The position numbers and the translations under genes are program-made. From Gibbula magus (Eukaryota; Mollusca; Gastropoda; Trochida; Trochidae), in assembly GCA_936450465.1 (NCBI GenBank), contig OW388303.1, forward strand, positions 3,121,693 to 3,185,692: 64,000 nucleotides of DNA, in the 5' to 3' direction. The notes beneath the pieces are model-generated. The model worked only from the letters and a program-made list of their open reading frames with translations. It did no database searches and was not told the DNA's origin. This document shows, piece by piece, positions 17,357 through 63,456 of this stretch (position 1 is its first letter; each line of letters starts with the position of its first letter).

Positions 17357-17704
17357 ATGGGCAGTAGCACGTTTTTTTCAAATTTTATTATTTTCCTATT
17401 TATATTGATAGTTTAATTCATTTATATTAACTTAAGAGGGTAAAACATCTTATTACACAAACCAATTATCCGTAGTGGTAATAACTGTGTTGCGTAAAGA
17501 GCAAAAATTGCATGGCGGCCATTTTATTGTGAACACATTTTATTATTTCGAATGACAAAAACGATTCCCGTGGCTTTACGGAACCATGTACACTAATTTG
17601 TAACTTGTCTTTCCGAAGAGAGAAGGGTGTTTTACTATTGGTGACATTATTTTTCAAATACGTGTAATCGACTTATTTGAGCGAAAAAACGTGCTACAGC
17701 GCCT
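17357..17704. mobile_element. TTAA-flanked MITE, copy b (348 bp)
   Basis: Flanked by TTAA at 17,353-17,356 and 17,705-17,708. The right terminal repeat reads AAAAAACGTGCTACAGCGCC; the left end is a slightly changed inverse (GGGCAGTAGCACGTTTTTTT). The core GCATGGCGGCCATTTTATTG is shared with copies a and c. The minus-strand frame at 17,466-17,657 lies wholly inside it. Confidence 0.9.
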
Positions 17705-17776
17705 TTAATGTTCGTATCCACATGACATAGCAATGTCATTGTTATCGTTTTCGAGTTGAAGTGTTATACTTTTTAA

Positions 17777-18129
17777 AGGCGCTGTAGCACGTTTTTTTCT
17801 AATTTTATTTTTCAATTTTCTAATTTCTAATAATAGTTTATGTCATTTATATTTACTTTAGATGGTAAAACATCATATTACACACACCAATAATCCGTAG
17901 AAGTAATAACGGTGTTGCGTATAACGCAAAAATTGCATGGCGGCCATTTTATTGTGAACACAATTTATTATTTCAAATAACAAAAACGATCCCCATGGCT
18001 TTACTGAGTCATGTACACTGATTTTAAACTTGATTTTCCCAAGAGAAAAGAGCGATTTACGATTTGTGAAAATATTTTTCAAATACATTTCATCGACTTA
18101 TTTGAGCGAAAAAACGTGCTACAGCGCCT
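17777..18129. mobile_element. TTAA-flanked MITE, copy c (353 bp)
   Basis: This is the best-preserved copy. The left end is AGGCGCTGTAGCACGTTTTT and the right end is its exact inverse, with TTAA on both sides (17,773-17,776 and 18,130-18,133). It lies only 72 bp from copy b in the same orientation. It has no transposase, so it depends on an element elsewhere in the genome. Confidence 0.92.
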
Positions 18130-24838: not shown

Positions 24839-25844
24839 CAACAGGCAGTTTTTACATACCATAAATGTATACGTGTATTTCAACTCTTGTAGTTTCCTCA
24901 CCTTTGTTCGGCGTGTTTTCTCTGTTATGCTATACTTTTTATAAATAATACATTTTAAATAATAAGATTTGTTTGTTTTATTACAATTCTGAAATAGTAG
25001 TTTTAACATACGACATTTGGCATTTTGCCATATGTGTTGTGCGCCTTTTGCATCCCTTGTGGATTTGTTAATTTTGTTTCGTACTGATATTTAAACTGAC
25101 GCTTTAATGCGTTTTTTTTATTTCCAATTGAAATTAAAACCTTAAAAACAAAAAATACTAAGAGCTATTAAATCAAATAAGATTGAAAGGTTATTTCATT
25201 AGCATCTAATTATAATCTGTCATCTGTCAATTTTGTGCAAGTTTTCATTATTTTGTTTCTTGTCGATAAAAAAACACAAATGTTCACAATAATATATTTG
25301 TCACATACATGTTCCTTTCATATATAACCGTTTCTATTTCTTTTTACATAATGTCCGTAATTTCTAACTTCTCGTTTGTCAGAGAAGAAAGTAAATGTGA
25401 TCGTTTGCAAAAGCTATTAAATTCATTCCCTTAAGAATACAAAACATAATGAAATATAATTCAAATTCACATATAACGACACCAATGTATGTGCTTAGTT
25501 TTGTGCAGAATGAGACGGCTTCATAGAATAAAAAAAAACACCTTACATTAACCTTGTTAATAGATCAAAGGTCAAAGTCTTTTAGAATATTAGAGTCTTA
25601 GAGAATATTATAATATAGAGAATATTAGAAATTAGAGAATAACTAAATGAACCAGTTCAACATTGATTCATACGTATTTCATTCTATTTTTTAATTACAC
25701 CCCTTGCGAAGTTATTTCTTTTGTTTGAGTTGCAGGTTAACCACCATGGTCATTTATGAGATATTCAACCGACGGAAACAGATGGACTTGTAAAATTTTG
25801 GAAATTTTGTCAAATTAGAAATGAAAATTTTGTAAGTAAGGAAA
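24839..25844. other. intergenic, nothing recognised
   Basis: AT-rich, with short AGAATATTA-type repeats near 25,580-25,640. No exon or element end is supported. Confidence 0.5.
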
Positions 25845-25912
25845 GAGGGGTTCGAAACCTGAACCTCTATATCGTCGAACAGCGCCTTTACCAATGTAGC
25901 TAACGGATCCAT
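25845..25912 (-). mobile_element. tRNA-like SINE head
   Basis: On the minus strand there is an A-box-like GTTAGCTACATTGGTAAAGG and, after about 30 nt, a B-box GGTTTCGAACCCC. The acceptor ends do not pair well, so this is a SINE remnant, not a tRNA gene. Confidence 0.45.
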
Positions 25913-26181
25913 ACCGATGAGTGTTCATTCTTTTGTGTCTTGGCTGTATTTATATATTTTATAGTATTATATATACATATGTATATATGGGTACCAATTT
26001 ATGTCTACTTTGTGTATGGAATGAATGATTAAGTTTGAAACCTTCCTTTCGAGTCAGTTATGGGTGTATTGGGAATATTTCACTGATATTTTGATCATGT
26101 CGTATAAATCAACAAAATACTCCTTTAAAATCCATATATACAATTACTTTTTAAATAGAGTGTTCCGCGGGAGTGTAAGGC

Positions 26182-26287
26182 AAATACTGACCCGATTGTT
26201 TCGCGTTATGGCAATAAACTCTGCTCGGGCTGACGCCCTCGCGAGTTTATATGCCATAACCGTCCGGCACCGGGTCATTCATTATTT
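26182..26287. repeat. hairpin with GCTCGGGCTGACGCCCTCGC apex
   Basis: The inner arms are 26,205-26,221 (GTTATGGCAATAAACTC) and 26,243-26,260 (GAGTTTATATGCCATAAC), with weaker pairing out to TGACCCG near 26,188 and its inverse near 26,272. The centre at 26,223-26,242 is GCTCGGGCTGACGCCCTCGC. It can fold as GC, a TC/TC internal loop, GGGC/GCCC and a TGAC tetraloop. The same apex, one base pair shorter, caps the unrelated palindrome at 59.9 kb. The surrounding 200 bp is more GC-rich than its neighbourhood. Confidence 0.8.
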
Positions 26288-26399
26288 ACTACATGTCCAA
26301 CTCTTCAAGTTGCCTCCACACGTTCGCCGCTCGTTTAATACCGTATTCCCAAGGCATAGGCGATATCTGCAGGCGAATTATATACATGTATACATGTAG

Positions 26400-30609: not shown

Positions 30610-33240
30610 GTTAGTGATAGTTCCTAATGCAGTATTGCCGAGTGAATTCCCAGGGATTGTCAACTATACCACAAACAACAAAGTAAACACAACTTTACTT
30701 CAGGAGACAATACTACACGGAACTGTATCGTAAATATAATTCGTCACTAACATGCAAATATGTAATATACATATTAACATACTGTCATGTTACTGTTATT
30801 TAAATTCCACTGCATAATTATATTTCAAGCATGCATGCTTACAATGTAAATTCTTTTAAGTTCCTTTACGTAATGAAGTTGGGCTCCTAATGGAAAATGC
30901 ACCTACTGAAAGCAAAGCTTGTCCAACAAACGTTCATTGTGATGAACTAAAACCCTCAGTCTATCCAGCTGATTTATCACGGATACTATGTATTCTTTAT
31001 TGCAGACTTATAAATGTGACTGTGAAATGCTCCCCCGGACAGGAAGTTTTCTCATTCCAATACATTCTGTGACCAATTCAGCATTCAACATGTACTCTTG
31101 TGAAGCAATTTCTGGGAGCTGAAGGGGATATTTATGTAACTCAAAATCGTTATTTTTGTCTGAAATATTTCATTCAGACGTAATAATGATCTCATTTGCT
31201 ATATTACGTTGTGGGCTTCAAAACATTAAATAAATTGGAACGCTGTAATGAAAAAAAATGATGTTTGATCGTCCGTGAATTAATACAGGATCGAATGTTC
31301 TATTTACGTGACAATGTAGTGTTTGTTTACTTACCTTCATAACAAACTGTTTTCGGATGAATTAAGAACAAAATTACTAATTCATACATTCGTGCTACAA
31401 ATCGAATTATGAGGGAATAGGACAATGACGTTTTTGAGTTGACAAAGAAAAACTGTTTATCCATACCGTTCTAACATGTTATCATTAAAACCTCGTCAAT
31501 GCAAAGGTTTTGCATATGGTTACGAAATGTACACTTTTCAACTAGTGTCAAATATTTTGCCATGAAACCGAAATAGAAATGTTATTATATGAATAAACGT
31601 TGCTACTTCAAAGCATAGTCCATGGGTAAGAAACATGCTAGAATTTTTACAATTAGTTCCAAAGACATGTGCAGTGAACGCGGAATACAATCACTTGCAG
31701 AAGTTTAATTAACTCAATACCAAAGTTTAATCGTTCTGTATGCACAATTTAATCAGTGGATTCCTGTTTGTTTTCTTCGGGTCAAGAAGTCCATGGTTCG
31801 AGTTTAGGTGCAATGTTACAATGAATTTCAATACAGTACCACCCATGGTTCGCTAGTTCCACTCAGCAGGTTTCACTGCAATGCATAGTACATTGGTGCT
31901 GCGGACTTTCTTCCTGCAATGATACTACAGTCGTGATATAAGTGAAATAATATTTATAGCGCCTTTTAACACCAAATAATCGCATCTCACCTTTTGTTAT
32001 GGGGGTAAGACCAAGAGAAGCATATCTATATTCACAGCATCGAAATATTGCTTTTTATAGGGAAACGGTAAGAACGAAATTGAATTTCCAAAATAGAAAA
32101 AGTCACTAGCGCACAGCTTGAATTTTGTTTATGTACAGATTCAACAATGAATACCGTAATAGATTTTACGATATACTACGAATTTTAATCATAAGACACA
32201 GGAAGGGCAGACGAGGCTACTGTTTTTATCCCTCCGCAATGTGATACAGGGAGCATAAAAACACCAATACGACAACCTGCCTATTTTATTTATCTGGAAT
32301 ACTATCCATCCTTTATTCCAGACATGTAAACTTGATTATGAAATGCTATAACAGTCAGCTAGCTATCTCTTTTGCATTAGTTTTGTCTGAGACCAACACG
32401 ACCTTTAGTTATTTGAAGTACTACCCAAGAGTGAAAGAGTACAACGATCTTACATAAAGACGTTAATTGTGTCTCACAATGATATTTTGTGAATATTACT
32501 TTAAAAAAACGATAAAACATATTGAACATTGGTACTATCTATTTCAATATTTATAGAAAGCGCGTCAGTCGTAATATTATTCACTGAATCATATTTCATG
32601 TTTTGAAATATTGACAATTCATTTAAATGTCATTGCTTTTCAAAATATCCATGCACTTTTCATGTTGAAAATAGGTTTCTACCAGACAGAAATACAATTT
32701 ACTTGAAAAATATAAACATTCATGCCCGACTATGACCGTGTTATTTAATATCTTCTAAATTTATGAGAAAACTGGCCGAGATTCTGTAAACGTGATTTCA
32801 CCTTTCTAAAGCCCTTAAATTTGAGAAGACAAATACAGTTCTTTGGGACGTCCATTTCTAATCCCGATTGACTGTATTCGTCGTTGAAGCCTTTTAAGAG
32901 CCAGTGATCCTTAAGAAGAAGTCGAACATGAGAAAAAAACTTCTGGACAGTCGTCGGACGTTAGTGCATGCGATATGCACCACACAATATGTCTCCCAGT
33001 TTTCATCATAAGCATAAACTTACAGACAACATTTACGCAATTAGTTTACATAGGTTACTTACTTTCCCAACAGTATTTTACAACATTAGTCGTTATTTGA
33101 AAATGTAAATATAGTTTGCATATTGTCTAGATAAAATCAAAAGCAGTGTCAGTTTATACAATCATAAAGCGTACATAGTTCTGAGTGTACACATGTGCTT
33201 GACTTCACTGGAAAACAAGTATTGTTCACTTCGATTACAG

Positions 33241-33331
33241 CTCAATCATATCCGAAATAGAGGCAACGGGTGAGACCACAAGTAAACTGCAAGAAGCAGA
33301 CAACCGCAGTTTCCGCCTCATCCCAGACTCG
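33241..33331 (+). CDS. 91-bp exon-like block, copy 1
   Basis: A 91-bp block is flanked by a good acceptor (TTCGATTACAG, ending 33,240) and a consensus donor (GTGAGT, from 33,332). After one leading base the frame is open throughout and encodes 30 residues, including Glu-Ala-Thr-Gly-Glu-Thr-Thr-Ser-Lys-Leu-Gln-Glu-Ala-Asp-Asn-Arg-Ser-Phe-Arg-Leu. The same block recurs in copy 3 (54,341-54,431), where the donor G is changed to A; copy 2 has lost the region. Sharp splice borders and a hydrophilic, gap-free frame suggest an internal exon of a host gene that went into the array. I do not recognise the protein, and other exons were not found with confidence. Confidence 0.4.
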
Positions 33332-34283
33332 GTGAGTCTCCAAATCCAAATATTTCGATAGAATGCTTGTGCATCTCTTGTTGTATTCCAGTTCAGTCTG
33401 GCATTTTTACACCAGATTTTATGTTGTAAACGACATTGAATATTCCTGTCTGAATCGTTTGCTTGCAAAAGTTTAAAAAGTTGGTTCTAACATGAACCTT
33501 GTGAAAATATCATCTAAAATAGGCCTGAAGTCAATTAATGAAGGCACCATTGACCATTTCTCGAAATGTTTCATTACAATAACTTAAATTTCAACCTTTG
33601 CTTGTTAAGCCTTATCACAGCAACCAATCAGATAGATCTTTATGACAGAGTTTGCTTTATTTGGCCGCCATGTTATTCTGAAAGTGAGATATGATATAAG
33701 TGGACCACCACCGGGGGTATAACAGTACAATACAGAGATTTTGCTACACACTGCTGTGGGCAAATTGGCAACTTTATAATAAATCAGTCTGCCTTTGAAA
33801 GTACCTTCTCTACAATCTAAGTTGATAAACATTCCAAATATGAAATCTCATAGCATACTTCATAATTGACGTGCTCAATACAAGATGGGAATGTGTGTGC
33901 CAATCCGCTTATTGGCATAGACACCTTGTGTTAGCTGCTCATGATCCGTTTAACAAGGCCGTGTTCTTAAATATATCTACTGGTGTCTGGTTGCTTTTAG
34001 TGAGTTACCATTGGAAACTAAACCCAGTTGTTTGTCTATATGGAGGACAAGTTGGACAGAGGTGATTGTATATCTATTGATGTAAACTTTACACTTGATG
34101 GAACATTGCTTTGGAGAAAGGATACTTACTTTTCTGACCAGTAAAACGTATTGTGTTAATATACATTATGCATTTAAGTAACGCGGACACTTGATCAGGC
34201 AACCGTATTTTACTCGGTAATAACAGCTATCAAGCACATAACCGATAAATAGTACAGTTCTAAACTTGATCCCAGAACGCTAT

Positions 34284-35060
34284 TGATTTTTATTTTTGAA
34301 TGTGTTGAAGACCAAAGAAATGGTCATAGATTTCAGGAAAACTAGATCTATAATAAATCCTGTGACTATTGATGATAATGAAATAGAAAGAGTAACGGAA
34401 TATAAATATTTGGGTACTGTCTTAGATTGGAAACTTTCTTGGAATGAAAACACTGACAAAATTTATAAGAAAGGACAGCAACGATTGCATTTTTTGTGGA
34501 AACATTTTAAAGTAGATCAAACTATTTTGAGGTTATTTTACCAAACGTTTATTCAAAGTGTGGTAACATTTAATTTTTTGAGTTGGTACGGAAACCTGTC
34601 TGTTCAAAATAAAAATAAACTCTCTAAAATTGTTAACACCGCTTCAAAAATTATTGGACTTCTTATTGAAAGCATCGGCAGTTTTTATGATCAACAACTT
34701 TCAAAAAAAGCAAATAAAATTTTAAGTGACTCAACTCACATACTTTTTTCGGAATATTCGTCACTGCCCTCTTGACGCAGACTGCGTATGCCGACGAGTA
34801 GAACAAACAGGTTTCGTCAATCATTTGTTCTGAATAGCATGTATGCCTTTAATGGGAATGTTTTGGAATGAATATTTAATGATCAATTTACACAAGGGTA
34901 TATAATGTTTATAATATTGTTTATATGGCTGTTGTTTGTTTTTTTTGTGTGATTTTCTTTTTGTTTTTTGTTTTTTATATATATACTGGAGACTGTATTA
35001 GATGTAATGTAAATTTCCCTCGGGATAATAAAGAGTTATCTTATCTTATCTTATCTTATA
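34284..35060 (+). mobile_element. 5'-truncated CR1/Rex1-like LINE with (TTATC)n tail
   Basis: Comparison with the empty site in copy 3 (around 55,385) defines this 777-bp insertion. A frame at 34,296-34,775 encodes the end of the reverse transcriptase and the thumb-like tail (Lys-Thr-Lys-Glu-Met-Val-Ile-Asp-Phe-Arg, then Glu-Tyr-Lys-Tyr-Leu-Gly-Thr-Val). The terminal Leu-Pro-Ser-Gly-Arg-Arg motif of this clade is broken: the Gly codon is TGA at 34,773-34,775, and the family-like frame continues for about 31 codons beyond it to TGA at about 34,869. The element ends in AATAAAGAG and about four TTATC units. About 11 bp at the target are missing relative to copy 3. It is a dead copy that arose by reverse transcription. 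Confidence 0.85.
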
Positions 35061-36203
35061 AGTTCAACCCCGCCCACTGTTATCTGTAACTGGGTTGAGT
35101 TGAGCTAATCCACCCAATGTGGACTTGTAGACGTAACAATGAAATTATCCGTTATCTCTTGTTCTTCTTCATTTGGTTTGGTTAAAACTTTTCTTTTACG
35201 TCTGCTACGAACCGAAAACTCTAATGTCGCTTTGAAGTATTATTGTGGAAACAAATATACATAATGCTAAAGTATATATACACTTTAGAACAACACACAA
35301 ATAACATACAACATGTACTTATAACAAGGATACATTCACGTCTAAATGTGTGAATACTAACGATACAGATAAATACTTCTAACATGAATTTTAAATGAAT
35401 ACTTATGATTCTGTTTAATTTGTCAAAACTGAAGATACAAAATCTATAAGTAATATTTTAATGTGTTTAAAATGGATGAAAGTAAACACACCGTCTGCAT
35501 TGTTTGTCTATTAGTAAACATTTAGGAAGTAACTCAGCATACATATCTGTTAACTTAAACTGATTAGTTGTAATTGAGCATAACTGATTATCGCTTTTGA
35601 CATTGACATACTTACAGAAGTAGATTTCCTTTGTCTAAACAATGACGTATTAATCCCCTCGCTGTCTCTGGCTATTTACATTTCTGCATCTGACTATATA
35701 ATCGCAAAGACACAGGTGTGCGGGAAATAGGACAGGGGATTCATAATTAAGTTTAATCGTCTGGACTAAAAGATGAGGATCTTTATAATATGATATGTGA
35801 ACAGGAAATATAGACAAAACGTGTCACGTGCGTCTACAAACGACAACTGTTTGCACCTGATCTCAAAGTGTTTAAACTATAGAATATGACATGCACATTT
35901 TCGTATAAAATAATTAGACTGTGCACAGGTTATTCTGGGAGTTTGGTCTCAAAGAACAAATTTAGCAACACTGAGAAATAAATAAAAATAACTCTCTGTT
36001 TTTGTAACGTTACTAAATGTAAGTAAGTGTTACTTTTACGGGTGAATATATCATATATATCTTCAATTATACCAACTACACAGCAAAGGCTATAACTTTA
36101 AACTATAGTAACAATAACGATTACACCATGCCTCTAGAAGCCAACGAAACTCATTCGTATTTTGGAAGTATAATCCTGTTATTTATCTGGAAAACAAATG
36201 TTT

Positions 36204-36605
36204 TTAAAAGCGTTGTTTCGGAATTTCTTTAATCAGGCGAGATAGAAAGTGCAATATTGAGTTTTGCTTGTTTGATGACGCCCCGCAGTAACTATACGTC
36301 GACAAATTTAATTCCAAGAACATACATGATGGGGACAACACCTTGTAAAGATGTACATACTTTTCATATTCCATAAAATGTTTACTTAACTTCAAAAATT
36401 TAGGTCCAGAAAACCCTTTGTGTGTTTGAACTGATATAAACAAAATAAGTAGCATACCCATAATTTTGTACATGTATATCCTTTCACGAGATGTATCCTC
36501 ATCAGAAATATTTAAAATTGAGGCACCAGACACAATATTGTAAACTTGACTTTGTTGAGAAAAATATATTTTGCCACTTAGTTTATGTCTATAATAATTA
36601 ACCAA
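36204..36605 (-). CDS. frame kept between copies 1 and 2, unrecognised
   Basis: This minus-strand frame of up to 133 codons has a counterpart in copy 2 (47,288-47,557), where a stop interrupts it after the matching Cys-Gly-Ala-Ser. In the shared 80 or so residues there are about ten substitutions and no frameshift. It includes a hydrophobic run (Ile-Met-Gly-Met-Leu-Leu-Ile-Leu-Phe-Ile) that could be one membrane segment. Copy 3 has lost most of it. High identity of recent duplicates alone can explain the shared frame, so coding function is doubtful. Confidence 0.15.
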   Translation of the reverse strand: MVNYYRHKLSGKIYFSQQSQVYNIVSGASILNISDEDTSRERIYMYKIMGMLLILFISVQTHKGFSGPKFLKLSKHFMEYEKYVHLYKVLSPSCMFLELNLSTYSYCGASSNKQNSILHFLSRLIKEIPKQRF

Positions 36606-38468
36606 TTATTGTTCCAAACTAGGACTGTCTCAGGGCAATACTTATGTCTTCAAGATTTCTGCTTGACCTTGAGCTCAATGTTTGACTTTCATCCTCTTTA
36701 ATAGATCGGCTTTTCTTCTTTAAATCCTCAATCAATCATGTCTTTATCTTCGAATAACATCGGATGGAATCGAATTAATTAGATTGCTTGCATCAATAAG
36801 TTGTTATGTTCTTCTATATAGTTTTGGGAAGCCCAGAAGACGTTGTCGATGTGCGACTTTATATGGACAGGTTCAACAAACATGTCATTGTCCTAGAAAT
36901 TGTACACAGTAATTTGATGGAAATAAAAACTTAAATAGCATATTCAAATAAGCAGTTGGATCTTTTGAACTTTAACAATGTTTAAAAAATCCCATTTTTC
37001 AATTACCTCCGTTCATTTTTTAATTCAATTTCATTCAATGTTCACATGTACAATGTAGAGTAAAGGAGATGAATGCTCGAAAATAAATGTCCGTAATGAA
37101 ACGATATATCTGCTTTAACATGATTTATCAACCATTTTGGTATCTTATATGTTATAAAACAACACTTCTCTAAAGGATATGCCCTTCGAAACGTTTCAAA
37201 ATCACGACATTTAAATTTGTGTTGTAAATGTCCGAATTGTGCCTTAAGTTTCAGCTTTTATGTGCTATTGATCTTAAGGGAAACTGTTACAACTGTCTCT
37301 CATAGCTGAAAAGTTAAAGCAAATCAGCCCAGTCATTACTGCAGATAAGTCTGGACAAAAACATTTCATACAATAATAATAATGGAAAACTAGGATTGAC
37401 GCGGCAATACTTAGTTCTTCAAGACGTCTGCGGACCTTGAACTCGATGTTAGACTCTCGGTTATTCATCAGTTTCTCTGCTTTAAAATGAGCTTTTAAAC
37501 ATGTCTCTATCTTCAGTAGATTTTGTTAAAAAAAGACAAATACCCTCTGAAAATGGAGCTTTACAATGAGCAACTGCATAATGCTGTATGTATCGCCGTT
37601 ATTTACAAGAAGATTTTTGAAGACACATGCCATCAAAACCGCGAAAGTTCACCAGATTTTAAGTTTTTCGAATTGCAAAAAATCTATTATTACGACCGAA
37701 AACCGTACTAGACCTTATCGATGGGGAATGTTGTTGCCCAAATTTTGGTGGAGGTTTTGTGAAATTATCCTGAATAGTTTTTTTGGCTATTGAGGTTTGA
37801 AGTTTAAACTTCAAGGGGATATAACCCAAGAAAGAAGTGGAAAATCAAAAATCGGACTCCGTTATGATCTAATTTGTTTCACAGAGTATTAGCCCTGGAA
37901 GTTTCCGGAAAATCGGTCCAGCCATTACTTCAAAACTCGTTGGACAAAATCGGTCAAAAAGGCCATAGTAATTTCAGGAAATCAGGATAAAAACAATAGG
38001 TCAAGACATTCTTGAAGACCTAATAACAATGGAAGACCTAATGATAGTAAGCACCCATGTTAACTGATTTGATTTAAACATATTTTATTCAATGAAGAAA
38101 GGGATTAGGGACAAGTTATTCAACTTCGGTAACCTTCTCCCATGTATTTACAAAATGATAGAATTATAACAACATACATGTAATAAGAAAACAATATAAA
38201 ACAGAAATGGTAGAAAGATATTTACAGAGAAATGAAGAGACATGCATCAGTCAAGAGAAACGTTTACTATTGGTTATAAATTGCTGAACTGCTTTAAAAA
38301 TTGCCTGTTTTTTTCGAATATGATAGTTTTTTCGTTGCCACTTAACAGGAAATCTAAATTTATATCATCTTCATGTACATGTAATGTTAAAATGTTAAAC
38401 ATGTTTTTTCTGTGTACATAATAAAAACAGCATTTAAACATGAAGTGAAACACATTTTCACATAAATA

Positions 38469-38970
38469 AATTCAGACTTTGCATTTTAAGCGATATGCTC
38501 TCTGCTGATTGGTTTAAACAAGGTCATGTGAACGGTATACATTCTCATAAACGCAAGATTGACAGCTGAAAAGGATAACCTTCTAACTCTGACGTTTACA
38601 AAAAATAACCTGCGGTACTACTTTATCACTATACCATTGCGCAATTATGAAACTGCTATCACATGCTCTTTCCTTGATTAAACTTTTTACAAACCTTACA
38701 ACGTGAATTCTAATTGTAGTTTGATTGAAACTTTGATTAAAACAGCATGTTAGAACCAAACATTAAATACTATAATCATATTTCCTGTGAACTACGTTTT
38801 GCGCGTGGTGACTCATACGTGATGCGGTATTATTGTGGGCGGATCTAAGTGCCTCATCTAAGACGATATTAAACATGTGTTTTATCATGCACTGTACATT
38901 TTTGCAGATAGTTTTATATTCAAAAGATTATTTACTGATTAGAAATCGCTTAAATTGCAAAGTTTGAATT
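38469..38970. mobile_element. 502-bp MITE with TA flanks
   Basis: The inverted ends are AATTCAGACTTTGCATTTTA and its near-perfect inverse (38,951-38,970), with TA on both sides (38,467-38,468 and 38,971-38,972). A TA target is typical of Tc1/mariner-type elements. There is no transposase frame. It sits where copy 2 has LINE sequence. Confidence 0.7.
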
Positions 38971-39013
38971 TATAAGAAATAGATTTAATAATGTGTTTGC
39001 TCACTGGCTTATA

Positions 39014-39104
39014 AACGGTTTGAAAGTTCAAGTTAATCTGTAGTATAAATAGTGTCGACAAGCTCCGGTATTTATACCAGTTTAACTTGCACCTTTCAAA
39101 CCGT
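39014..39104. repeat. palindrome ending at the LINE junction
   Basis: The left arm (about 39,014-39,051) and right arm (39,069-39,104) pair over about 37 positions with a few mismatches (AACGGTTTGAAAG against CTTTCAAACCGTG at the outside, TATAAATA against TATTTATA at the inside). The 17-nt apex is GTGTCGACAAGCTCCGG, unlike the apex at 26.2 and 59.9 kb. The right arm stops where LINE sequence resumes. Confidence 0.7.
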
Positions 39105-40915
39105 GTTCATCTACGTTTCTGACCAAAATACAAGGTTATGTTATAAAAAAAATTTCTAAGCGTGAACTTTATAGCTTCAGTTTTATTTGGATTATATCTA
39201 ATCAACCAACGCTTTCCCCAGCAGCTGAGTTCATGTAGGTTTGAGTTTAAAGTTTGATGTCACGAAACACAAGCATTAGTGGTCACGCTGCAAAGCCAAA
39301 TCCTGATAAATACGTTTGATCAGTTACTTCAGACACAGAGGCGTGTATCACTTGGAAATGGCGTTTGGAGGACAGAAATCCCTGCTTATGCCTTACTCCT
39401 ATCCTCGTACATAGTAATAAGAAAGCTATAAAGACATAACTGTCTTTCTTATGCAAGTTTAAAGCGATGCACGCCCCTTTACATCTAAGCTTAATTTATG
39501 GAAGCAGTAGCATCCATAATTAAGGTGTTTAACTGAAAGTTTAACATAGAAGTAATAATTAATGTGAAAAAACAAAAGCCTACCTTTTTGCAATTATTTG
39601 CATTCCAAGAAAAAACTTTGATACGAAATATCTTATTGACAAAAACACACAGACTGCTATAAGAAATGTTTGAATAACAAGATTTTCCACGCAGTCCTTC
39701 ACTGATGTCTTACTTAAAATATTTCGCAAGTGACCATTGTATTGTTTACGCCAATGTTGTGCACACAATACAAACATAAATTCTCAGATTGCTTTAAAAT
39801 GTATTACGTCTAGACCTTTGAAACAGATTTGAAGAGAAAATGTACTTAACGATTAATTGGTTTCCTACAACTGTTCATTGTGATTGACTCATGAATATTG
39901 TTCCCAGAAACTGAACAGGTAATATACGTCCAATACTATTCATCTTTTGTTCTATACTTGTAAATAAGAATGTCAAATCCTGTAACAGTCAGGCATTATT
40001 CCATTACGTTGTTTCTAGGACCATGTCAAGCTTTCAGAATAAAAAAAGTATACTTATATCAGACAAAGTTGTTTTTTAATCTTATACGAGTTATGTTTGC
40101 AATATTTTATTGGCAATTATTTTGGTAAAATAGAAATAATTTGTATTTTGCAAAGGCAATAGCTTAACATATTCACAATTACATTCAATAGGATAATCTG
40201 TTGGTATTTATATGCATGAGGTGAGACTTTTTCAAAATGTTTTTTTGGCCAGAAGGTGTGGTATCTAAGTTTTAAAAGATGTGATGTGGACATTTAATGA
40301 ATAAAAAAATATCTATGTAAATTGGCTTTTTGGACTTTTATTATTTGACAAATCATTATTGTAGGATGTCATACAATACATGTGGTAACCATCCTATCTA
40401 TCCTTAGTAAGGAGATTTCGTAACGATGTTGGCATAACAGAAACATGCGCAGATAATGTTTCAAAATTTATTTAGAATACCTGCAGACAAAATGGATCTC
40501 TCTTTCAGTCGTATTTACGGAAACCTTTTTTTCTTGAACAAATTGTGTCTATGGATACAGTTACCTACATTGTATGTCAATTGATACACACATGTACAAT
40601 GTACATAAATGTACAGGTATTTAGAATGTAGCTTGGAGAAAGACAAGAGTGAAATGATATAACGTTTGGTTTTGGTTCGTATTAACCATTTATTCATTTA
40701 ACCTGTTCATGACGTAAGGTTCTTAAAAAAGCATGCATAAATCATGTTTGAAACAAGACACGACTTATGGGTTGTTGTTTATAAGCACTTGAAGGAGCAT
40801 CTGCAAAGTGCATGAGTAGAGCATAAAATCTTAAACACCTGTCAAAACACCTACTTGAATCAAGTGGCTGGGAAATGTTCAGAGGCCAATAATGATTTAC
40901 CATCTACCTGGCTGT

Positions 40916-43594: not shown

Positions 43595-44659
43595 AGTTGC
43601 ACTTAATTCAGGAAACAATTTGCATTGTCACAAAGCAGGCTCGCATACAATTCGTCATTGACATGCAAATAAGAAATATACGTAAACTTAAATCAACTTT
43701 TCACATTATAAGCAATTATGCTTATATTCCTCAAAGCTATATTACGTCATGGAGTAGGAGTCCTGATGGCAAAATGCACTTACTCAGAACAAAGTTTGTC
43801 CTACAAACCTTCATTGTGATTAACTAAAACCCTCAGCCCATCAAGCTGATATACCTAGAATACTATATATTCTTTATTGCAGACTTATAAATGTGATTGT
43901 GAAATGCTCCAGTAGTTTGCTGTGATTTCAATTCAGCACACATACATGTATAGTCTTGTGAAGTAATTTCTGGTAGCTGAAGGGGGTATCAAAATCGTTA
44001 TTTTTGGCTGGAATGTTTCCTAGCATTTGACATTGTAATTATGATCTTATTTGCGATATTACGCTGCGCACTTCAAGACACTTAAATAAGTTTGAACGCT
44101 GTAATGAAAACACTTGATGTTTGATCGTCCTTGAATTAATACCCGACCAAATGTTCTATTTACGTTAGAATGTGGTGTTTGTTTACTTACCTTCATGACA
44201 AACTTTTCGGATGTATTAAAAACATGAATACAAATTACTGCACTGTTACAAGTGGAATTATAAGGAAATAAGACAATTACTATTTTGAGTTGAAAAAGAT
44301 AAACCTATTATACATATGATTCTAATCTCGATATTCATTGAAATCTCGTCAAGGCAAATGCCATGCTTAAGGTTACAAAATGGACACTTTCCCAGCAGTC
44401 TCAAACTATACTTCTTCCATGAAACCGAAATAGAAATTTCATTGTATGAATAAACGTTGCTACTTCAAAGCATTGTCCATGGGTAGGAAACATGCTAGAA
44501 TTTATAAAAATTAGATTCACAGACGTGTTCAGTAAACGCGAAATAAAATCACTTGCAGAAGTTTAATTAACTCAATACCAAATGGCACCATTAAACATTT
44601 TAATCGTTCTGAATGCACAGTTTAATCAGTCGATTTCTTTTTGTTTTCTTTGGACCAAG

Positions 44660-44700
44660 ATGTTGATGGTTCGAATCCCGTCATGGACTCGGCAACGTTG
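44660..44700 (+). mobile_element. tRNA B-box remnant
   Basis: GATGGTTCGAATCCCGTC at about 44,668 matches a B-box, and the homologous places in copies 1 and 3 (about 31,792 and 52,938) keep only GGTTCGAGTTTAGG. It is probably the last trace of a SINE. Confidence 0.3.
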
Positions 44701-47700: not shown

Positions 47701-48624
47701 TATGCTATAGAATAATACTTATCTAAAGGATATGCCCTTCGAAACGTTTCAAAATCACGACATTCAAATTTGTGTTGTAAATGTCCAAGTTGTGCCTTAA
47801 CTTTCAGCTGTTATGGGATATTGATCTAAAGGGAAACTGTTAAAGCTGTTTTGGGGATCACACTACAATAAATAGTTAGGGAAATAAGTCTATCATACTG
47901 AACATTTTAAGCAAATCAGCTCAGCCATTACTGCAGATAAGTCTGGACAAAAACAGTTCATACAATAATAATAATGGAAAACTAGGATTGATGCGTCAAT
48001 ACTTAGTTCTTCAAGACTTCTGCGGACCTCGAACTCAATGTTAGACTCTCGGTTATTCATCAGTTTCTCTGCTTTAAAATGAGCTTTTAAACATGTCTCT
48101 ATCTTCAGTAGATTGTGTAAAAAAAGACAATGACCCTCTGAAAATGGAGCTTCCCAATGAGCTATTGCATGATGCTGTATGTATCGCCGTTATTTACAAA
48201 AATATTTTTGAAGACACGTACCATCAAAACCGCGAAAGTTCACCAAATTTTCAGTTTTTCGACTTGCAAAAAAATCTATTATTACGGCCAAAAACCGTTA
48301 TAGGCCTAATCGGTGGGGAATGTTGTTGCCCACATTTTGGTGGAGGTTGTGTGAACTTATCTTGAACGGTTTTTTGGCTATTGAGGTTTGAAGTTTCAAC
48401 TTCAAGGGGATATAACCCAAGAAAGAATTGGAAAATAAAAAATCGAGCTCCGTTATGATCTTATTTGGGTCACAGAGTTTTAGCCCTGGAAGTTTCAGAA
48501 AAATCGTTCAAGCCATTACTTCAGAACTCGTTGGGCAAAATCGGTCAGGATAAAAACAATAGGTCTTCAGACATTCCTAATAACAATGGAATACCTAATG
48601 ATAGTAGGCGCCTAGTTTGACTGA

Positions 48625-50281
48625 TTTGATTTAAACATATTTTATTCAATGAAGAAAGGGATTAGGAACACGTTATCCAACTTAGGTAACCTTCTCCCAT
48701 GTATTTACAAAATGATAGAATTATAACAACATACATGTAATAAGAAAACAATATAATACAGAAATGGTAGAAAGATATTTACAGAGAAATGAAGAAACAT
48801 GCATCAGTCAAGAGAAACGTTTACTATTGGTTATAAATTGCTGAACTGCTTTAAAAATTGCCCGGTTTTTCGAATATGACAGTTATTTTGTTGCCACTTA
48901 ACAGTAAATCTAAATTTATGTCATATTCATGTAATTGTAATTTTAAAATGTTAAATAATGTTTTTTCTGTGTACATCATATTAACAGCATTTAAACATGA
49001 AGTGAAACACATTTTCACATAAATAACCACATTCATATGTTGAATCTGACTTGATGCCAATGTTGAATAAATCATAATTAAGCTCGCTTTCATGATATTG
49101 TAAACGAATATGTTGAATATTCACTCTGCGGATACCTGTGGAAAAGTAGGATGGTGCCATAATAATTGATTTCTTTAAGTATGATTTAAACTTTTCTGTT
49201 GATTGTAGCATTCGTTTTTCCAATGGAACATTATTCCACAATACTGTGGTTGAAGGGATAAAAGACAGGCATGAATGTTTCAGTCTACATGATGGAATTA
49301 CTAAGTTTACAGAATTTCTAAGTTCATAAGTACTGGAGTCACCAACGGTCTTAGGGAGTAAATCTATTAGATAAAAGGGTGCATTACCACGTTGTATTTT
49401 ATGGTATAGTGTTAATGTCCTCCTTTCCCTGCGTTCTGACAGTGTTTCCCACCCAGTTTCAAAATAAAGATATTTAACTGGTGTGTATTTTGGTCATCCT
49501 CGGTTACCCAGGGTTTTATATATGCTCCGTTACTCTCCACTATACCACCCATGGGAAACTTCATCAGATAAATTTTTACTCAAATTACCCGCCGTTGGCC
49601 GGCGAGAGCCAATCAAACCGCTACGCAGCTTGGACCTGCGAGCCAATGACAATTCATATCACTTCGTTGCAAAGCATGCGAGGTCATTTTGTTAGCCATC
49701 CGTCACCGGTTATCTCCCTTGACCATTTCCGTCTTATCGTATTGAGTATTTTCTTTGGTTACTGACTTTGTCACGCCAGCCAAGGGCGGGTTATTTTAGT
49801 ACAGATTTCGCTGACAGAGTTTCCCATGTGTGATATAGTAGAGAGAAACGGAGCATATATTATACTCTGGGTAACCGAGGATGATTTGGTAGACCAGTAA
49901 CAATACGAGCTGCTATAAGTTAAAGTTTTTCTAGTCGCAATGATTGTTTTATATTACAGCCTTCCCAAACCTCGCATGCATATTCAAAATGTGGTCTAAT
50001 AAACATAACATTAATTTCGTTCAAGATTTGCCTGCTTAATATAAATTTTAGTTTACGCATGGAGTTAATCATCATAGAAATTGATAGTTCTAAGTTGTTG
50101 ATATGCTTATTCCATTTGCCATGTCCGAAAACGTCACACCTAAATGTTTATGTTCATCTACGTTTCTGATTGGACATCCATCAAAATACAAGGTTATGTT
50201 ATCGATTTGGTTTCTGAGCGTGAATATTATAGCTTCAGTTTTATTTGGATTATATCTAAGCAACCAACGCTTTCCCCAGTT
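48625..50281 (-). mobile_element. LINE remnant A, copy 2
   Basis: The most complete copy of a 5'-truncated CR1/L2-like LINE. Reading on the minus strand, it starts in the late reverse transcriptase (Asn-Pro-Asn-Lys-Thr-Glu-Ala-Ile, then His-Leu-Gly-Val-Thr-Phe-Ser). It passes a hAT-like MITE inserted at Gly-Leu-Pro-Lys, continues with Trp-Asn-Asn-Val-Pro-Leu-Glu-Lys-Arg, and ends with the Cys/His motif (Cys-Gly-Tyr-Leu-Cys-Glu-Asn-Val-Phe-His-Phe). The 3' end is AATAAAATATGTTTAAATC. Frameshifts and stops make it non-functional. The same insertion is present in all three units, so it predates the tandem duplication. Confidence 0.85.
49495..49883. mobile_element. hAT-like MITE in LINE A, copy 2 (389 bp)
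   Basis: The ends are CATCCTCGGTTACCCAG and its exact inverse, with inverted similarity running about 95 bp inward. The left flank is ATTTTGGT and the right flank ATTTGGT, an 8-bp target duplication with one T lost. Removing the element and one flank restores a continuous LINE reading frame. The GC-rich centre holds short frames (49,481-49,765 and 49,483-49,695) that are not genes. Confidence 0.88.
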
Positions 50282-51635: not shown

Positions 51636-51848
51636 CAACTTCCCAATGCAAGGCATAACTCTTGCCAGTCTCCATTACTGGCTGATTTAGGCCTTGCAGT
51701 ATAAATCTGTTCTTAGAAATCCAGGCCCACTATGCATTTCTGGTGCAATGATTCACTATCTAGGCACAAAAAAGCGAGAGAATACCGCAAGGCTTAAATC
51801 AGGCAGTAATGCAGACTTGAAAGAGTTATGCCTTGCGTTTGGAAGTTG
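51636..51848. mobile_element. 213-bp MITE with 9-bp target duplication
   Basis: TGGATACAC occurs at 51,627-51,635 and again at 51,849-51,857. Between them is a 213-bp element with inverted ends (CAACTTCC...GGAAGTTG) and further inverted pairing through GCAAGGCATAACTCTT. Copies 1 and 3 keep the uninterrupted target, TTGATACAC. A 9-bp duplication fits Mutator-like or Merlin-type elements. The 63-codon frame inside is not a gene. Confidence 0.88.
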
Positions 51849-57051: not shown

Positions 57052-57080
57052 GGGGGGGGGGGGGGGGGGGGGGGGGGGGG
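57052..57080 (+). repeat. poly-G run of 29
   Basis: Twenty-nine consecutive G residues. Copies 1 and 2 have ordinary mixed sequence here (AAAATCAAAAATCGGACTCC and similar), so the run replaced about 25 bp or the flanks were lost. Confidence 0.9.
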
Positions 57081-58476: not shown

Positions 58477-58761
58477 ATTTTGGTAGGCCAGTAACAATAC
58501 GAGCTGCTTGAAGTTAAAGTTTTTCTAGTCGCAATGATTGTTCTATATTACAGCCATCCCAAACCTCGCATGCATATTCAAAATGTGGTCTAATAAACAT
58601 AACTTAGAACAAATTAAAGTCAAATGCTTTCGTCCAATCATATGATTGTATTGTGGTCACGTGGAGTACATTTATATCCCGATAGATGTACGGTTGTCTG
58701 GTTGCGTTCGGGTATCATGCTCAGACTTCCATAAAAACAACAAACAATGTCAACTGATTGT

Positions 58762-58767
58762 TTTATT
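58762..58767 (-). terminator. poly(A) signal overlapping the stop codon
   Basis: AATAAA on the minus strand overlaps the TAA of the gene model (58,763-58,765). T/G-rich text (TTTGTTGTTTTTATGG) follows 25-40 nt downstream, as expected of a cleavage region. The 3' UTR would be very short. Confidence 0.4.
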
Positions 58768-59531
58768 TATGTGGATAATACACAATTAAACACTTATTAC
58801 ATTGACAAATGATTTCCTGTGTTCCCTTTCCGAAAGGAAAAAGTCGCTTCCGTCGATGGGGGTCTTCTATGTCAAGGAGCTTGATATTCCTAAAAGAAGA
58901 ATAACATCATGTAACTAAAGCAAGTAATGTTAGGACAATTGGGAATTTTCAAGTGTATTTCATTTATATCACGAGTAAGTGAAACAACGACAAGTATCAA
59001 ACCATGTTACCAATGTTTTATATATTTTCAACCACGACATTAAAAAAAATTGCAGACGTTATATAGAACGAGATAAAAAATGAGAAGAAAGTGATATAAA
59101 AGTACCTTCCTGGGGTGTTAGAGGATGGAGACTGCATTGTCGTCTCACTGAAACCCTGTATTGTCACACAGCGTCCGAGCGATGTCCAGTACGACGTTAC
59201 ATTAGTTCCCATAGACAGCTCGAGTATAATTTCGTTGCTGCAGTAACCTGAAATAATTCATATGCAATATAGACGGGATGCACAATAGCATATGCAACAA
59301 TAGATATTACAACTCGCATATTGATAAATACAGCTCAACAAACAAACAAAAACATTTGAAATACAAAAAACAATAACTTTTATTAAATCAACCAATTTAA
59401 TGAAATTTACTTTGAATTTAAAAAATAACACTTTAAAAAGTAAGGAGCAAAAAAGTAAAGTTACCTTTCCTAAATGTATTTATCCTTGGACTGTCAATGA
59501 TGAAGCCAGTGTGTGATATAGGCAATGACAT
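58763..59531 (-). CDS. three-exon gene model, small Cys-containing protein
   Basis: Exons on the minus strand are 59,531-59,465 (ATG, 67 nt), 59,247-59,106 (142 nt) and 58,889-58,763 (127 nt, TAA). Introns of 217 and 216 bp have clean borders: AAAG|GTAACT...TTATTTCAG|GTTAC and GGAAG|GTACTT...CTTCTTTTAG|GAATA. Phases 1 and 2 match across both junctions, giving 111 residues. An in-frame TAA lies two codons before the ATG. The middle exon has two Cys (Gly-Tyr-Cys-Ser-Asn and Leu-Gly-Arg-Cys-Val-Thr). The last exon has Asp-Ile-Glu-Asp-Pro-His-Arg, a basic stretch Arg-Arg-Lys-Arg, and Cys-Gln-Cys-Asn-Lys-Cys near the C-terminus. DPxR followed by CxCxxC recalls interleukin-17-type cystine knots, but the second half of that domain and a signal peptide are missing, so this is only a suggestion. 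Confidence 0.45.
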
Positions 59532-59626
59532 GCATTACTGCTCAATGTTACTGAATAAAAACGTGGTTAAATCATGCATGTTCGTGATTCAAGCACAACA
59601 CTTATGCTGTAGCACGACTCGTACGC

Positions 59627-59636
59627 TTTATATAAA
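59627..59636 (-). promoter_or_regulatory. TATA-like box upstream of the gene model
   Basis: TTTATATAAA (palindromic; TATATAAAG on the minus strand) lies about 96 bp before the proposed ATG, a suitable place for a short 5' UTR. Confidence 0.3.
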
Positions 59637-59855
59637 ATGTACGCCTCATGCACCTCGGACAATTTAAGAAATTCAGTACTCACAGTGCTGATGATGACGT
59701 CAATGTCCCGAACATTTGCATTTGAAAATGAAAAATGTCAATGTTTTTCATGTTGTGTTCGAGAGAATGTTTCCCAAATTTGTTGACAATTCATTTGAAA
59801 TATATTCATTTTAAGACATTTTCTTGACGACTCAAGAATTTGACTGTGCTCTAAG

Positions 59856-59999
59856 ATAGATAGAGAACTCGCAGCAGTACATTATCGGGATATAAATGTA
59901 CGGGTTTGAGAGGGTTAGGCTCGGCTGACGCCTCGCCCAACCCTCTCAAACCCGTACATTTATATCCCGATAATGTACTGCTACTCGTCCTCTATCTAT
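59856..59999. repeat. 144-bp palindrome with GCTCGGCTGACGCCTCGC apex
   Basis: The arms 59,856-59,916 and 59,939-59,999 match at 57 of 61 positions by my count. The inner 36 bp (from ATTATCGGGATATAAATG to GAGAGGGTT) are identical and all four mismatches lie near the outer end. The 22-nt centre contains GCTCGGCTGACGCCTCGC, which can fold as GC, a TC/TC internal loop, GGC/GCC and a TGAC tetraloop. The right arm stops one base before the junction with the LINE. Confidence 0.92.
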
Positions 60000-62900
60000 T
60001 ACATAAATTTTGTTCAAGATTTGCCTGCTTAATATAAATTTTAGTTTATGCATGGAGTTTATCATCTTAGAAATTGATAGTACTAAGTTGTTGATATGCT
60101 TATTCCATTTGCCTTCGTCTGAAAACGTCACACCTAAATGTTTATGTCCATCTACGTTTCTGATTGTGCATCCATCAAAATACAAGGTTATGTTATCGAT
60201 TTGATTTTTAAGCGTGAACATTATAGCTTCAGTTTTATTTGGATTATATCTATTCAACCAACGCTTTCCCCAGGAGCGAAGTTTATGTAGGTGTGAGTTT
60301 GACGTCACGAAACTCACAAGCATTAGTGGACAAGCTACAAAGCCAAATCCTGATAAATACGTTTGATCAGTTACTTCAGACACAGAGGCGTGTATCACTT
60401 GGAAATGGCGTTAGGAGGACAGAAAACCCTGCTTATGCTTTACTCCTATCCTTTTACATAGTAATAAGAAAGCTATAAAGACATAAATGTCTTTCTCATG
60501 CAAGTTTAAAGCGATACACGCCCCTTTACAGTTAAGCTTAATTTATGGATGCAGTTGGTGCATCCATAATTTTTCAGTCACTTGATGACGTATTTCAATT
60601 ACAGATCTGTAAGGTTTGTATTGTTTTTAACTGAAAGTGTAACATAGAAGTAATTATTAATGTGACAAAACACAAACTTTTTGCAAGTATTTGCATTCCA
60701 AGAAAATACTTTGATACGAAATATCTTATTGACAAAAACACACAGACTGCTATAAGAAATGTCAGAATATCAAGATTTGCCACGCAGTCCTTCACTGATA
60801 TTTTACTTAAAATATATCGCAAGTGAGCATTTTATTGTTTACGCCAATGGTGTGCACACAATACAAACATACATTCTCAGAATGCTTTAAAATGTATTAC
60901 GTCTAGACCTTTGAAACAGATATGAAGAGAAGATGTACTTAGCGATTAATTGTTTTCCTACGACTGTTCATTGTGATTGACTAATGAATATTGTTCCCAG
61001 AAACTGTCTAGGTAATATACGTCAAATACTATTCATCTTTTGTTCTATACTTGTAAATAAGGATGTCAAATCCTGTAACAGTCAGGCATTATTCCATTGC
61101 GTTGTGTCTAGGATCATGTCAAGGCTCAAGAAGTCACAAACGCATTCGCCTTGAATAAAAAAGTACACTTATATCAGACAAAGTTATATATTTTTTTATC
61201 TTTTAAGAGTTATGTTTGCAATATAATATTGACAATTATTGTATTGTATTTTGCAAAGGCAATAGCTTAACATATTCACAAATACATTCAATAGGGTAAG
61301 CTGCTGGTATTTATATGCATGAGGTGTTAAACCCACTTTTTCAAAATGTTTTTTTGGCCAGAAGGTGTGCTATGTAAGACGTAAAAGATGTGAATAATAA
61401 ATGAAAAAAAAGATCTATGTAAATTGGCTTTTTGGACTTTTATTATTTGACAAATCATTATTGTAGGATGTCATGCAAGGGTCGTGTTGTAACCATCCCA
61501 TCTATCTTGTTAAGGAGATTTCGTAACGATGTTGGCATAACAGAAACATGCGCAGATACAATTTATTTAGAATACCTGCAGACACAATGGATCTCTCTTT
61601 CAGTCGTATTTACGGAAACCTTCTTTCTTGAAGTGTGTCTATGGATACAGTTACCTATATTGTATATCAATTGATACACACCTGTACATAAATGTACAGG
61701 TATTTAGATTGGAGCTTGAGGAAAGACAAGAGTGAAATGATATAACATTTGTTTTTGGTTTGAAGAGACAGTTTCACCTCACAACTTCATTAGTCATATG
61801 ACCTTAATGACGTTTTGTATTTTGTCACACGTGATGGTCCAACGAATCATTGAACTGTACACATGGTACTTTTTATGTCATACTTACACTTCAGAGTCAG
61901 TCAGATTAAGAACGATGACATTAGAAGACGAAAGTCCTATGGTGTAACTCGACCCCATTTACAAAATAATCCCAGGTACTATCGTTTAATTAATATAAAT
62001 AATAAACATATCAAATTTCATTTTTTCAATAAAGGAGTCTCTTATCGGAGATCATATATCAACATTACAAGAAAACTGTGGCTGAAATCTGTAAAGCAGC
62101 AAACTGGGCCCTTGGGGCTGTGATAGCTAAGTTCAATACTATGGGACGTCTAAGTCACAATGTGTTTACCAAACTGTTTGATACTTATGTTCAACCAGTG
62201 TTAAACTATAGTGCCTTTGTTTGCGGTCTGAATAAGAAATTAATAATGTTCAAAATAAAGCCTGTCGATTCTTCCTGGGCGTCCGGAAAAACAGTTCGAA
62301 CATCGCTGTACGAGGCGACATAGGCTGGAGGAACCAAGAGACCAAGATACAAATTGAATTGTTCAGATATTTCGATAAAACTGTAACTTTGGATCCAAAC
62401 TCAGTTCCAGGAATCATTCACAGGCTGTTAGTGAGGAGGAAATCATCATGGGACTACAGGGTAATTAATGGACATGGTCAAGAAGCTTATCATCACTAGT
62501 GATCAGAGTGTTTATGATTATTGTAATAATAATAACAGGCCAGTGTTCCTGGACCAAGTGTTACAGGACTTAGATAAAAGAGACAAAGAGAAGTGGTATT
62601 CAGATCTTTTTAATGATAAGAACAACATAAATGGAAATAAATTAAAAACATATAGACTGTTAAAACAAGAATTGATACATGCCAATATGTCAAGATGTCT
62701 CTACCCAGACAGTACAGAAGTATAATCGCCTCCTTGCGCTGTGGTAGCCTGCCTATTAACATTGAACGTGGAAGATATACCAAGCCAGTCACACCTCTAC
62801 CTGACTGTGCACTCTCTGTGATAAGAAATGTATAGAAGATGAATTTCATTTTGCCGTTGAATGCAGTTTCTTTGATGACTCAAGACAGCCGATGTATAAT

Positions 62901-63455: not shown

Positions 63456-63456
<1 letters not shown>

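What the first reader, a model, noticed from the sequence alone, without database searches (positions are those of the whole stretch)
26182..26287. Two hairpins with unrelated arms share the same 18-20 nt apex
The hairpin at 26.2 kb is capped by GCTCGGGCTGACGCCCTCGC. The 144-bp palindrome at 59,856-59,999 is capped by GCTCGGCTGACGCCTCGC, the same string with one G-C pair fewer. The stems do not resemble each other. Both apices can fold as a GC clamp, a symmetric TC/TC internal loop, a short G-C stem and a TGAC tetraloop. Ordinary repeat families keep their arms and vary their centre; here the cap is conserved and the arms look like arbitrary local DNA copied in inverted orientation. One model is a mobile or enzyme-recognised cap that primes snap-back synthesis, or joins the two strands at a break, and leaves an inverted duplication of its flank.
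Basis: partly seen in the sequence, partly recalled or inferred. Interest (0 to 1): 0.75.

Follow-up and report, generated by a model that had tools for sequence, protein, structure and literature searches.

The report
Shared hairpin cap on element ends
The two odd hairpins are the end structures of two different families of parasitic DNA elements that share one unusual hairpin tip, which suggests that the same enzyme reads that tip when it moves them.

Summary
In detail: two hairpins with different stems carry the same 18/20-nt tip, the best-matching tip pair of the window. The genome (1.47 Gb, unnamed) holds 477 matches of the tip pattern, against 0 for its backwards control. The proposed origin of the arms is wrong. 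The first 100 places listed were fetched, and they fall into three families with shared arms: 75 like the 59.9-kb hairpin, 20 like the 26.2-kb one, 5 of a third kind. The hairpin is the right end of a longer element of about 1.4, 0.63 or 0.19 kb. The window holds one element of each of the first two families, at 58604-60002 and 25695-26292. A paralogous copy, empty at 50009/50010, shows a precise insertion without target-site duplication. No systematic duplications were found in 28 and 19 copies. The right flank prefers WTA. Families 1 and 2 mostly repeat the tip's CTCG:CTCG mismatch lower in the stem. Best reading: non-autonomous elements moved by a shared single-strand (HUH-like) transposase that reads the capped hairpin. 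The transposase search did not complete.

The parts
25695..26292 (+). Family-2 non-autonomous element (598 bp): 5' TTACACCCC..., 3' ...ATTATTTACTAC, capped hairpin at the right end
   Evidence: Both ends found in 19 of 20 family-2 genomic copies; window coordinates
26182..26287 (+). Right-terminal hairpin of the family-2 element (the finding)
   Evidence: the same arms in 20 of the 100 fetched cap copies
26223..26242 (+). 20-nt cap GCTCGGGCTGACGCCCTCGC
   Evidence: 20-nt forms are 25 of 100 fetched copies, 23 of this sequence and 2 with one changed base
58604..60002 (+). Family-1 non-autonomous element (1399 bp), full length, no target-site duplication
   Evidence: Aligned from position 15 of 1396 to its right end with 30 of 35 matching loci at 85-92% identity, three of those places fetched twice; empty paralogue
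59856..59999 (+). Right-terminal 144-nt hairpin of the family-1 element
   Evidence: the same arms in 75 of 100 fetched copies
59919..59936 (+). 18-nt cap GCTCGGCTGACGCCTCGC
59868..59871 (+). Outer CTCG, 5' side of the second CTCG:CTCG mismatch of the stem
   Evidence: Sequence; both sides present in 64 of 75 family-1 copies and 19 of 20 family-2 copies. The window's own family-2 copy has lost it
59984..59987 (+). Outer CTCG, 3' side of the second mismatch
   Evidence: Sequence
58666..58691 (+). Subterminal copy of the arm motif, GTACATTTATATCCCGATAGATGTAC, near the element's left end
   Evidence: 96% over 26 bp to both arms of the hairpin, E 3e-6; sequences printed
58635..58648 (.). 14-nt perfect palindrome near the left end
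   Evidence: one of 14 such four-letter palindromes in the window, so weak evidence by itself
50009..50010 (.). Junction in paralogous copy B that is the empty site of the family-1 element
   Evidence: AAACATAAC|ATTAATTT against filled AAACATAAC|element|ATAAATTT; flanks 285/300 and 273/310 identical

Best explanation
Both hairpins are terminal structures of non-autonomous mobile elements. Shown: element families with different bodies and arms end on the right in a hairpin with the same cap; ends are sharp; there is no systematic target-site duplication; the bases just right of the element are usually WTA; no conserved coding frame was found in family 1. Inferred: the families are moved in trans by one transposase that recognises the hairpin as single-stranded DNA, mainly through the CTCG:CTCG mismatch and the TGAC loop, and cuts next to it. 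Read on the minus strand the layout is flank YTAW, then GTA, then the mismatched hairpin, then the body, then the far end in CTAA or GTAA. That resembles HUH (rolling-circle or IS200/IS605-REP) ends, where the target resembles the element's own far end (recalled from general knowledge). The arms may drift as long as they pair; the cap may not.
For: 477 matches of the cap pattern, 0 backwards controls. Arms shared within families: 75, 20 and 5 of the 100 fetched. In pairwise comparison, right-hand homology stops 60-80 bp after the cap in 5404 of 5550 family-1 pairs and 40-60 bp in 372 of 380 family-2 and 18 of 20 family-3 pairs, while left-hand homology runs to the edge of the fetched sequence (780 bp or more) in 3702 of 5550 family-1 pairs and 540-600 bp in 342 of 380 family-2 pairs. 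28 distinct full-length family-1 copies of 1249-1462 bp; flanking repeats of 4 bp or more in 0 of 28 and 1 of 19 family-2 copies. Empty site. DTA right flank in 48 of 70 family-1 copies against 8.2% of window positions, and in 15 of the 19 family-2 flanks printed. Second CTCG:CTCG module in 64 of 75 and 19 of 20 copies; in the two copies examined, L511 and L487, CTCG is the only 4-mer repeated at mirrored places that is not its own reverse complement. RAYT cleavage is reported to need a GTAG tag and unpaired residues at the loop edge (PMC3733652, passages).
Against: No transposase or autonomous partner was found; the intended search of the genome did not complete. The GTAG tag is exact only in family 2 (GTAG, GTAA and GTAT in families 2, 1 and 3). 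Family 3 lacks the second CTCG module (0 of 5), and so does the window's own family-2 copy. Family 3 resembles family 2 at the left end and in part of the 5' arm (by eye), so the number of independent families may be two. Repeats of 3 bp flank 3 of 28 family-1 copies against 1.4 expected, and 2 of 19 family-2 copies share a 5-mer near both ends against 0.65. The window's family-2 copy is followed by ATG, not WTA. Three of 35 family-1 loci lack the left end with the hairpin side kept (L602, L603, L608; L608 also lacks the last bases of the right end), which a retrotransposition model also explains. Single-strand use of the hairpin is not shown.
Confidence: 0.6

Rival explanations
1. SINE-like elements copied by a LINE reverse transcriptase that recognises the 3' hairpin in RNA; left-truncated copies are 5' truncations.
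For: Three of 35 aligned family-1 loci lack the left end with the hairpin side kept (L602, L603, L608); one of them, L602/L505, is little more than the hairpin.
Against: No flanking repeats of 4 bp or more in 28 family-1 copies and only 1 of 19 in family 2; no A-rich or repeat tail, the 3' end is a fixed TAC; left ends are precise in full copies. Two other loci with short alignments keep the left end: L607 and, by its TTAGAGCA junction, L612.
Confidence: 0.14
2. Helentron/Helitron2-type rolling-circle elements (HINEs): a specific case of the best explanation, with a RepHel partner.
For: No systematic target-site duplication, hairpins or palindromes at both ends, subterminal copies of an arm motif. 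Eleven HINEs are described in an oyster (PMC7492417, passages), and Helentron families less than 70% identical can share nearly identical subTIRs (PMC4067079, passages).
Against: Target is WTA at the right flank, not TT or oligo-T; ends are TTA...TAC; the stems of families 1 and 2 are far longer than the 11-12 bp subTIR with 7-12 bp IR reported for oyster HINEs.
Confidence: 0.3
3. Ordinary MITE families moved by cut-and-paste, whose centres happen to be alike.
For: Multi-copy palindromes with shared arms.
Against: The palindrome is at one end, not the whole element; no terminal inverted repeats of the whole element were seen; no systematic target-site duplication, whereas a MITE in the same array (51627-51848) shows an 8-bp one and is absent from both sister copies.
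Confidence: 0.04
4. A mobile cap that primes snap-back synthesis or joins strands at a break and leaves an inverted copy of its flank.
For: Cap conserved, arms differ between families; one family-3 copy (L554) differs from L581 in both arms (18/21 and 13/21 identical) yet its own arms match 19/21, and its cap is unchanged.
Against: Arms are shared by 75, 20 and 5 copies; the empty site has no arm sequence.
Confidence: 0.03

Closest known systems
HINE / Helentron (Helitron2 group) non-autonomous elements
   Same: No systematic target-site duplication, hairpin or palindrome near ends, subterminal copy of the hairpin arm, similar ends on different bodies
   Different: Right-flank WTA instead of TT, ends TTA...TAC, long capped stems in families 1 and 2, tip shared across families; RepHel partner not tested
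Bacterial REP elements with RAYT, and IS200/IS605 ends
   Same: Terminal mismatched hairpin next to a GTA(G) tag, no systematic target-site duplication; mismatch near the loop reported to matter for RAYT cleavage (PMC3733652, passages)
   Different: Eukaryote-like 1.47-Gb genome, much longer stems, elements of 0.19-1.46 kb, enzyme unknown
Replitrons
   Same: Eukaryotic HUH transposons without terminal inverted repeats
   Different: Replitrons are described with short direct terminal repeats and 2-8 bp target-site duplications (PMC10741241, passages); neither is seen here. The original paper was not held
Palindromic MITEs
   Same: Short multi-copy elements with palindromes
   Different: The palindrome is one terminal part; no systematic target-site duplication

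Membership tests
HINE / Helentron | No target-site duplication | tested here: met
   4 bp or more in 0 of 28 (family 1) and 1 of 19 (family 2); 3 bp in 3 of 28 against 1.4 expected; empty site
HINE / Helentron | Insertion in TT or oligo-T | tested here: not met
   Right flank DTA in 48 of 70; left flank AT-rich without a fixed T run in 38 family-1 flanks; family-2 left flanks end in two or more T in most copies, which are counted here as the element's TTACACC start
HINE / Helentron | Subterminal inverted repeats and a palindrome near the 3' end | tested here: inconclusive
   The 26-bp subterminal motif matches both arms of the hairpin, so it is direct to one and inverted to the other; terminal palindromes present
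HINE / Helentron | RepHel partner with the same ends | not tested
   Search with PF14214 in the genome did not complete
Canonical Helitron | 5' TC, 3' CTRR, insertion between A and T | tested here: not met
   Ends TTA...TAC; on the minus strand GTA...CTAA (family 1) or GTAA (families 2, 3): CTRR fits family 1 only, 5' TC none
MITE (cut-and-paste) | Terminal inverted repeats of the whole element plus fixed-length target-site duplication | tested here: not met
IS200/IS605, REP/RAYT | Subterminal mismatched hairpin beside a GTAG-like tag | tested here: inconclusive
   GTAG, GTAA and GTAT in families 2, 1 and 3, minus strand; CTCG:CTCG mismatch
IS200/IS605, REP/RAYT | Y1 HUH transposase | not tested
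   Not searched: the genome search machine did not answer the family query that came first
Replitron | Direct terminal repeats and 2-8 bp target-site duplication | tested here: not met
   No systematic target-site duplication; ends TTA and TAC share no direct repeat
SINE / LINE-mobilised element | Target-site duplication and 3' tail | tested here: not met

The most novel reading that the evidence does not exclude
A so far unrecognised superfamily of eukaryotic single-strand transposons, working like REP/RAYT or IS200/IS605, whose transposase reads a mismatch-capped hairpin (CTCG:CTCG plus a TNNC loop), so that one enzyme moves families with different bodies and freely drifting arms.
Probability: 0.2. 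Interest if true: 0.8.

Novelty: new variant of a known kind. Interest (0 to 1): 0.52.

Why it matters
Non-autonomous elements without target-site duplications are hard to classify and their enzymes hard to find. If the enzyme is HUH-like, it would bring REP-like hairpin recognition into a eukaryote genome.

Tried and rejected
Mobile cap with local arms: rejected. A three-exon gene inside the 59.9-kb element, scanned as a 111-aa spliced protein: no Pfam match better than E 0.18, no homologue, and the only solved-structure match was a galectin at E 0.33. It was rejected when none of the 28 other full-length copies kept frame and start (a stop at the third codon in 28 of 28). Parvovirus-type terminal hairpin and adaptor artefact: considered from general knowledge and dropped once families and an empty site appeared. 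Protein-level search for translated hairpins: nothing. A scan of 130 of 194 open frames of the window against Pfam gave one strong match, ALKBH8_N, and two weak ones (E about 0.009). Sequence upstream of a hairpin-only copy (L615) showed no transposase that I recognised by eye; no family scan was made of it. L613 and L614 were fetched but not analysed.

No overall excess of pairs across the cap over control places: 10 or more pairs in 25 of 54 exact caps against 131 of 251 control places in prokaryotes, and 26 of 46 against 144 of 243 in viral contigs. A stricter count is slightly higher for exact caps: four or more perfect outer pairs in 5 of 51 against 1 of 67 other variants in prokaryotes, and 1 of 37 against 0 of 52 in viral contigs. 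TC/TC is 2 of 91 tandem mismatches in hairpins of those loci (its reversed control is uninformative because palindromes survive reversal). Arm patterns in viral contigs: 7 chance-like matches without inverted flanks (by eye), 0 and 0. Letter strings of caps and arms: 6 unrelated papers in one listing, none in two. Dating from arm differences was dropped because arm mismatches are fixed in the families. Families were assigned by cap form (family 1), by arm words (family 2) and by remainder (family 3), and checked by eye.

Odds changed on re-checking: the SINE-like rival went from 0.17 to 0.14, because two of five loci first taken as left-truncated (L607, L612) keep the left end.

Not done: a wider cap pattern in the genome (asked, never answered), and the search for an autonomous partner.

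Full report
Observation. They fold with the described tip, far better than shuffles, although the isolated tips do not. They are the two most stable hairpins found in a 120-nt sliding scan of the window. The tip pair ranks first of 77,562 apex comparisons, 32 of them dropped for homologous flanks, with score 14 against 12 for the next. Of seven CTCG...CTCG places in the window only these two have inverted flanks, by eye. The shared tip is therefore not chance.

A local empty site. The window contains diverged copies of a unit of about 10 kb. Copy B at 50.0 kb runs through a reverse-transcriptase-like frame that copy C breaks at 60 kb with a 1.4-kb insertion. The 144-nt hairpin is the right end of that insertion, which ends three bases after the hairpin. 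The junction reads AAACATAAC|TTAG...TTAC|ATAAATTT against AAACATAACATTAATTT in the empty copy: no duplication and nothing lost, allowing for one substitution in the flank. The longest word of the hairpin in copy B is 10 nt and lies elsewhere, so the arms came with the insertion. A 26-bp piece of the arm, GTACATTTATATCCCGATA(G)ATGTAC, recurs near the insertion's left end.

Genome. When the genome search answered, the cap pattern gave 477 matches in 1.47 Gb and none for the backwards control. I fetched the first 100 listed places with about 800 bp on each side. All 100 carry the cap at the centre: 75 of the 18-nt form, 23 of the 20-nt form and 2 of the 20-nt form with one changed base. They fall into three arm families of 75, 20 and 5. 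The 59.9-kb hairpin belongs to family 1 and the 26.2-kb hairpin to family 2 (89-93% identity over the main aligned segment of the copies printed). A search by arms with any centre gave 329 places; among the first 30, which were fetched, 24 had the standard cap and six carried one or two changes. Within a family the cap is not clearly better kept than the arms; the argument for the cap rests on the comparison between families.

Element anatomy. In pairwise comparison homology stops just after the right arm but continues to the left (counts under evidence). Family 1 runs from TTAGAGCAC to CTATCTATTAC; 28 distinct full-length copies are 1249-1462 bp. Family 2 runs from TTACACCCC to TTTACTAC, 614-644 bp in 19 of 20 copies; the window copy is 598 bp. 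Family 3 runs from TTACACCAC to TATAC, 188-193 bp in the 4 of 5 copies with both ends found, and consists of little more than two hairpins. Families 2 and 3 have similar left ends and part of the 5' arm in common, by eye. Flanking repeats of 4 bp or more occur in 0 of 28 family-1 copies and 1 of 19 family-2 copies; 3-bp repeats in 3 of 28 against 1.4 by shuffling, and near-end 5-mers in 2 of 19 against 0.65. The right flank is DTA in 48 of 70 family-1 copies against 8.2% of window positions, and in 15 of 19 family-2 flanks. Seventy of 75 family-1 copies keep the right end, by a slightly tolerant pattern. Of 35 longer loci, 30 align from the left end on; three (L602, L603, L608) lack it, L607 has an internal deletion, and L612 seems to keep only its first bases.

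What is conserved. Between families 1 and 2 the arms are different, but the tip is identical apart from one G-C pair. Both families repeat the same mismatch module, CTCG facing CTCG, once more lower in the stem: 64 of 75 and 19 of 20 copies. In one copy of each (L511, L487), CTCG is the only 4-mer repeated directly at mirrored places that is not its own reverse complement. Family 3 lacks the second module (0 of 5), and the window's own family-2 copy has lost it. One family-3 copy (L554) differs from L581 in both arms (18/21 and 13/21 identical) yet its own arms match 19/21, with the cap unchanged. This is what one expects if the tip is read in sequence and the arms only have to pair.

Mechanism, inferred. 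Precise ends, no systematic duplication, a hairpin at the end, a short target preference beside the hairpin end, and a far end (CTAA or GTAA on the minus strand) that resembles the target (YTAW) fit single-strand transposition by an HUH enzyme. Helentron-type and REP/IS200-type variants both remain possible. For REP elements, a RAYT enzyme is reported to need the GTAG tag and unpaired residues at the loop edge (PMC3733652, passages read); the TC/TC mismatch would play that part here. For Helentron/HINE definitions I read passages of PMC7492417, PMC5139131, PMC4067079 and PMC5148889, and for Replitrons a passage of PMC10741241. The target and end sequences here do not match those, so I do not file the elements as HINEs or Replitrons. 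Retrotransposition by a LINE is a rival because of three left-truncated loci, but the missing duplications speak against it.

Limits. The genome search machine answered two of my requests only. That I found nothing in print rests only on string and term searches in the held library, seen as listings.

Noticed in passing
31548-40905, 43742-52695, 52692-64000: Three diverged copies (about 78-94% identical in pieces) of a unit of roughly 10 kb that includes reverse-transcriptase-like fragments; differences between them give empty and filled sites for several insertions.
   Followed up: partly
51627-51848: Ordinary MITE with terminal inverted repeats and an 8-bp target-site duplication TGGATACA (read by eye), present in copy B only and absent from the sister copies.
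   Followed up: partly
49494-49884 and 58106-58477: Paired inverted repeats (114-nt arms about 150 nt apart) in the same place of two unit copies, next to a reverse-transcriptase-like frame.
   Followed up: no
L214, L161, L168: In Olsenella and Thermophilibacter the string CTCGGCTGACGCCTCG lies in a similar apical segment on top of long GC-rich arms that differ between the three records: a bacterial look-alike of conserved tip and variable arms.
   Followed up: partly
L178, L167, L222, L225: Haloarchaeal hairpin repeat CCCCACCCT...AGGGTGGG with the exact 20-nt tip GCTCGGGCTGACGCCCTCGC at its apex.
   Followed up: no
L113, L118, L148, L155: In Caulobacter-type genomes the 16-nt string CTCGGCTGACGCCTCG is the centre of a repeated GTTCGAGACG...CTCCTCACCATGA element.
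   Followed up: no
17681-17800: Another strong hairpin (minus strand) with ACGTGCTACAGCGCCTTTAA arms and an unrelated centre of about 60 nt, probably a different MITE.
   Followed up: no
34287-34775: Open frame matching Pfam ALKBH8_N (2e-9); the stretch present in this unit copy only ends before a TAAAGAGTTATCTTATCTTAT run.
   Followed up: no
L505, L602: A hairpin-only family-1 copy (one place fetched twice), cut inside the left arm but with an intact right end.
   Followed up: partly
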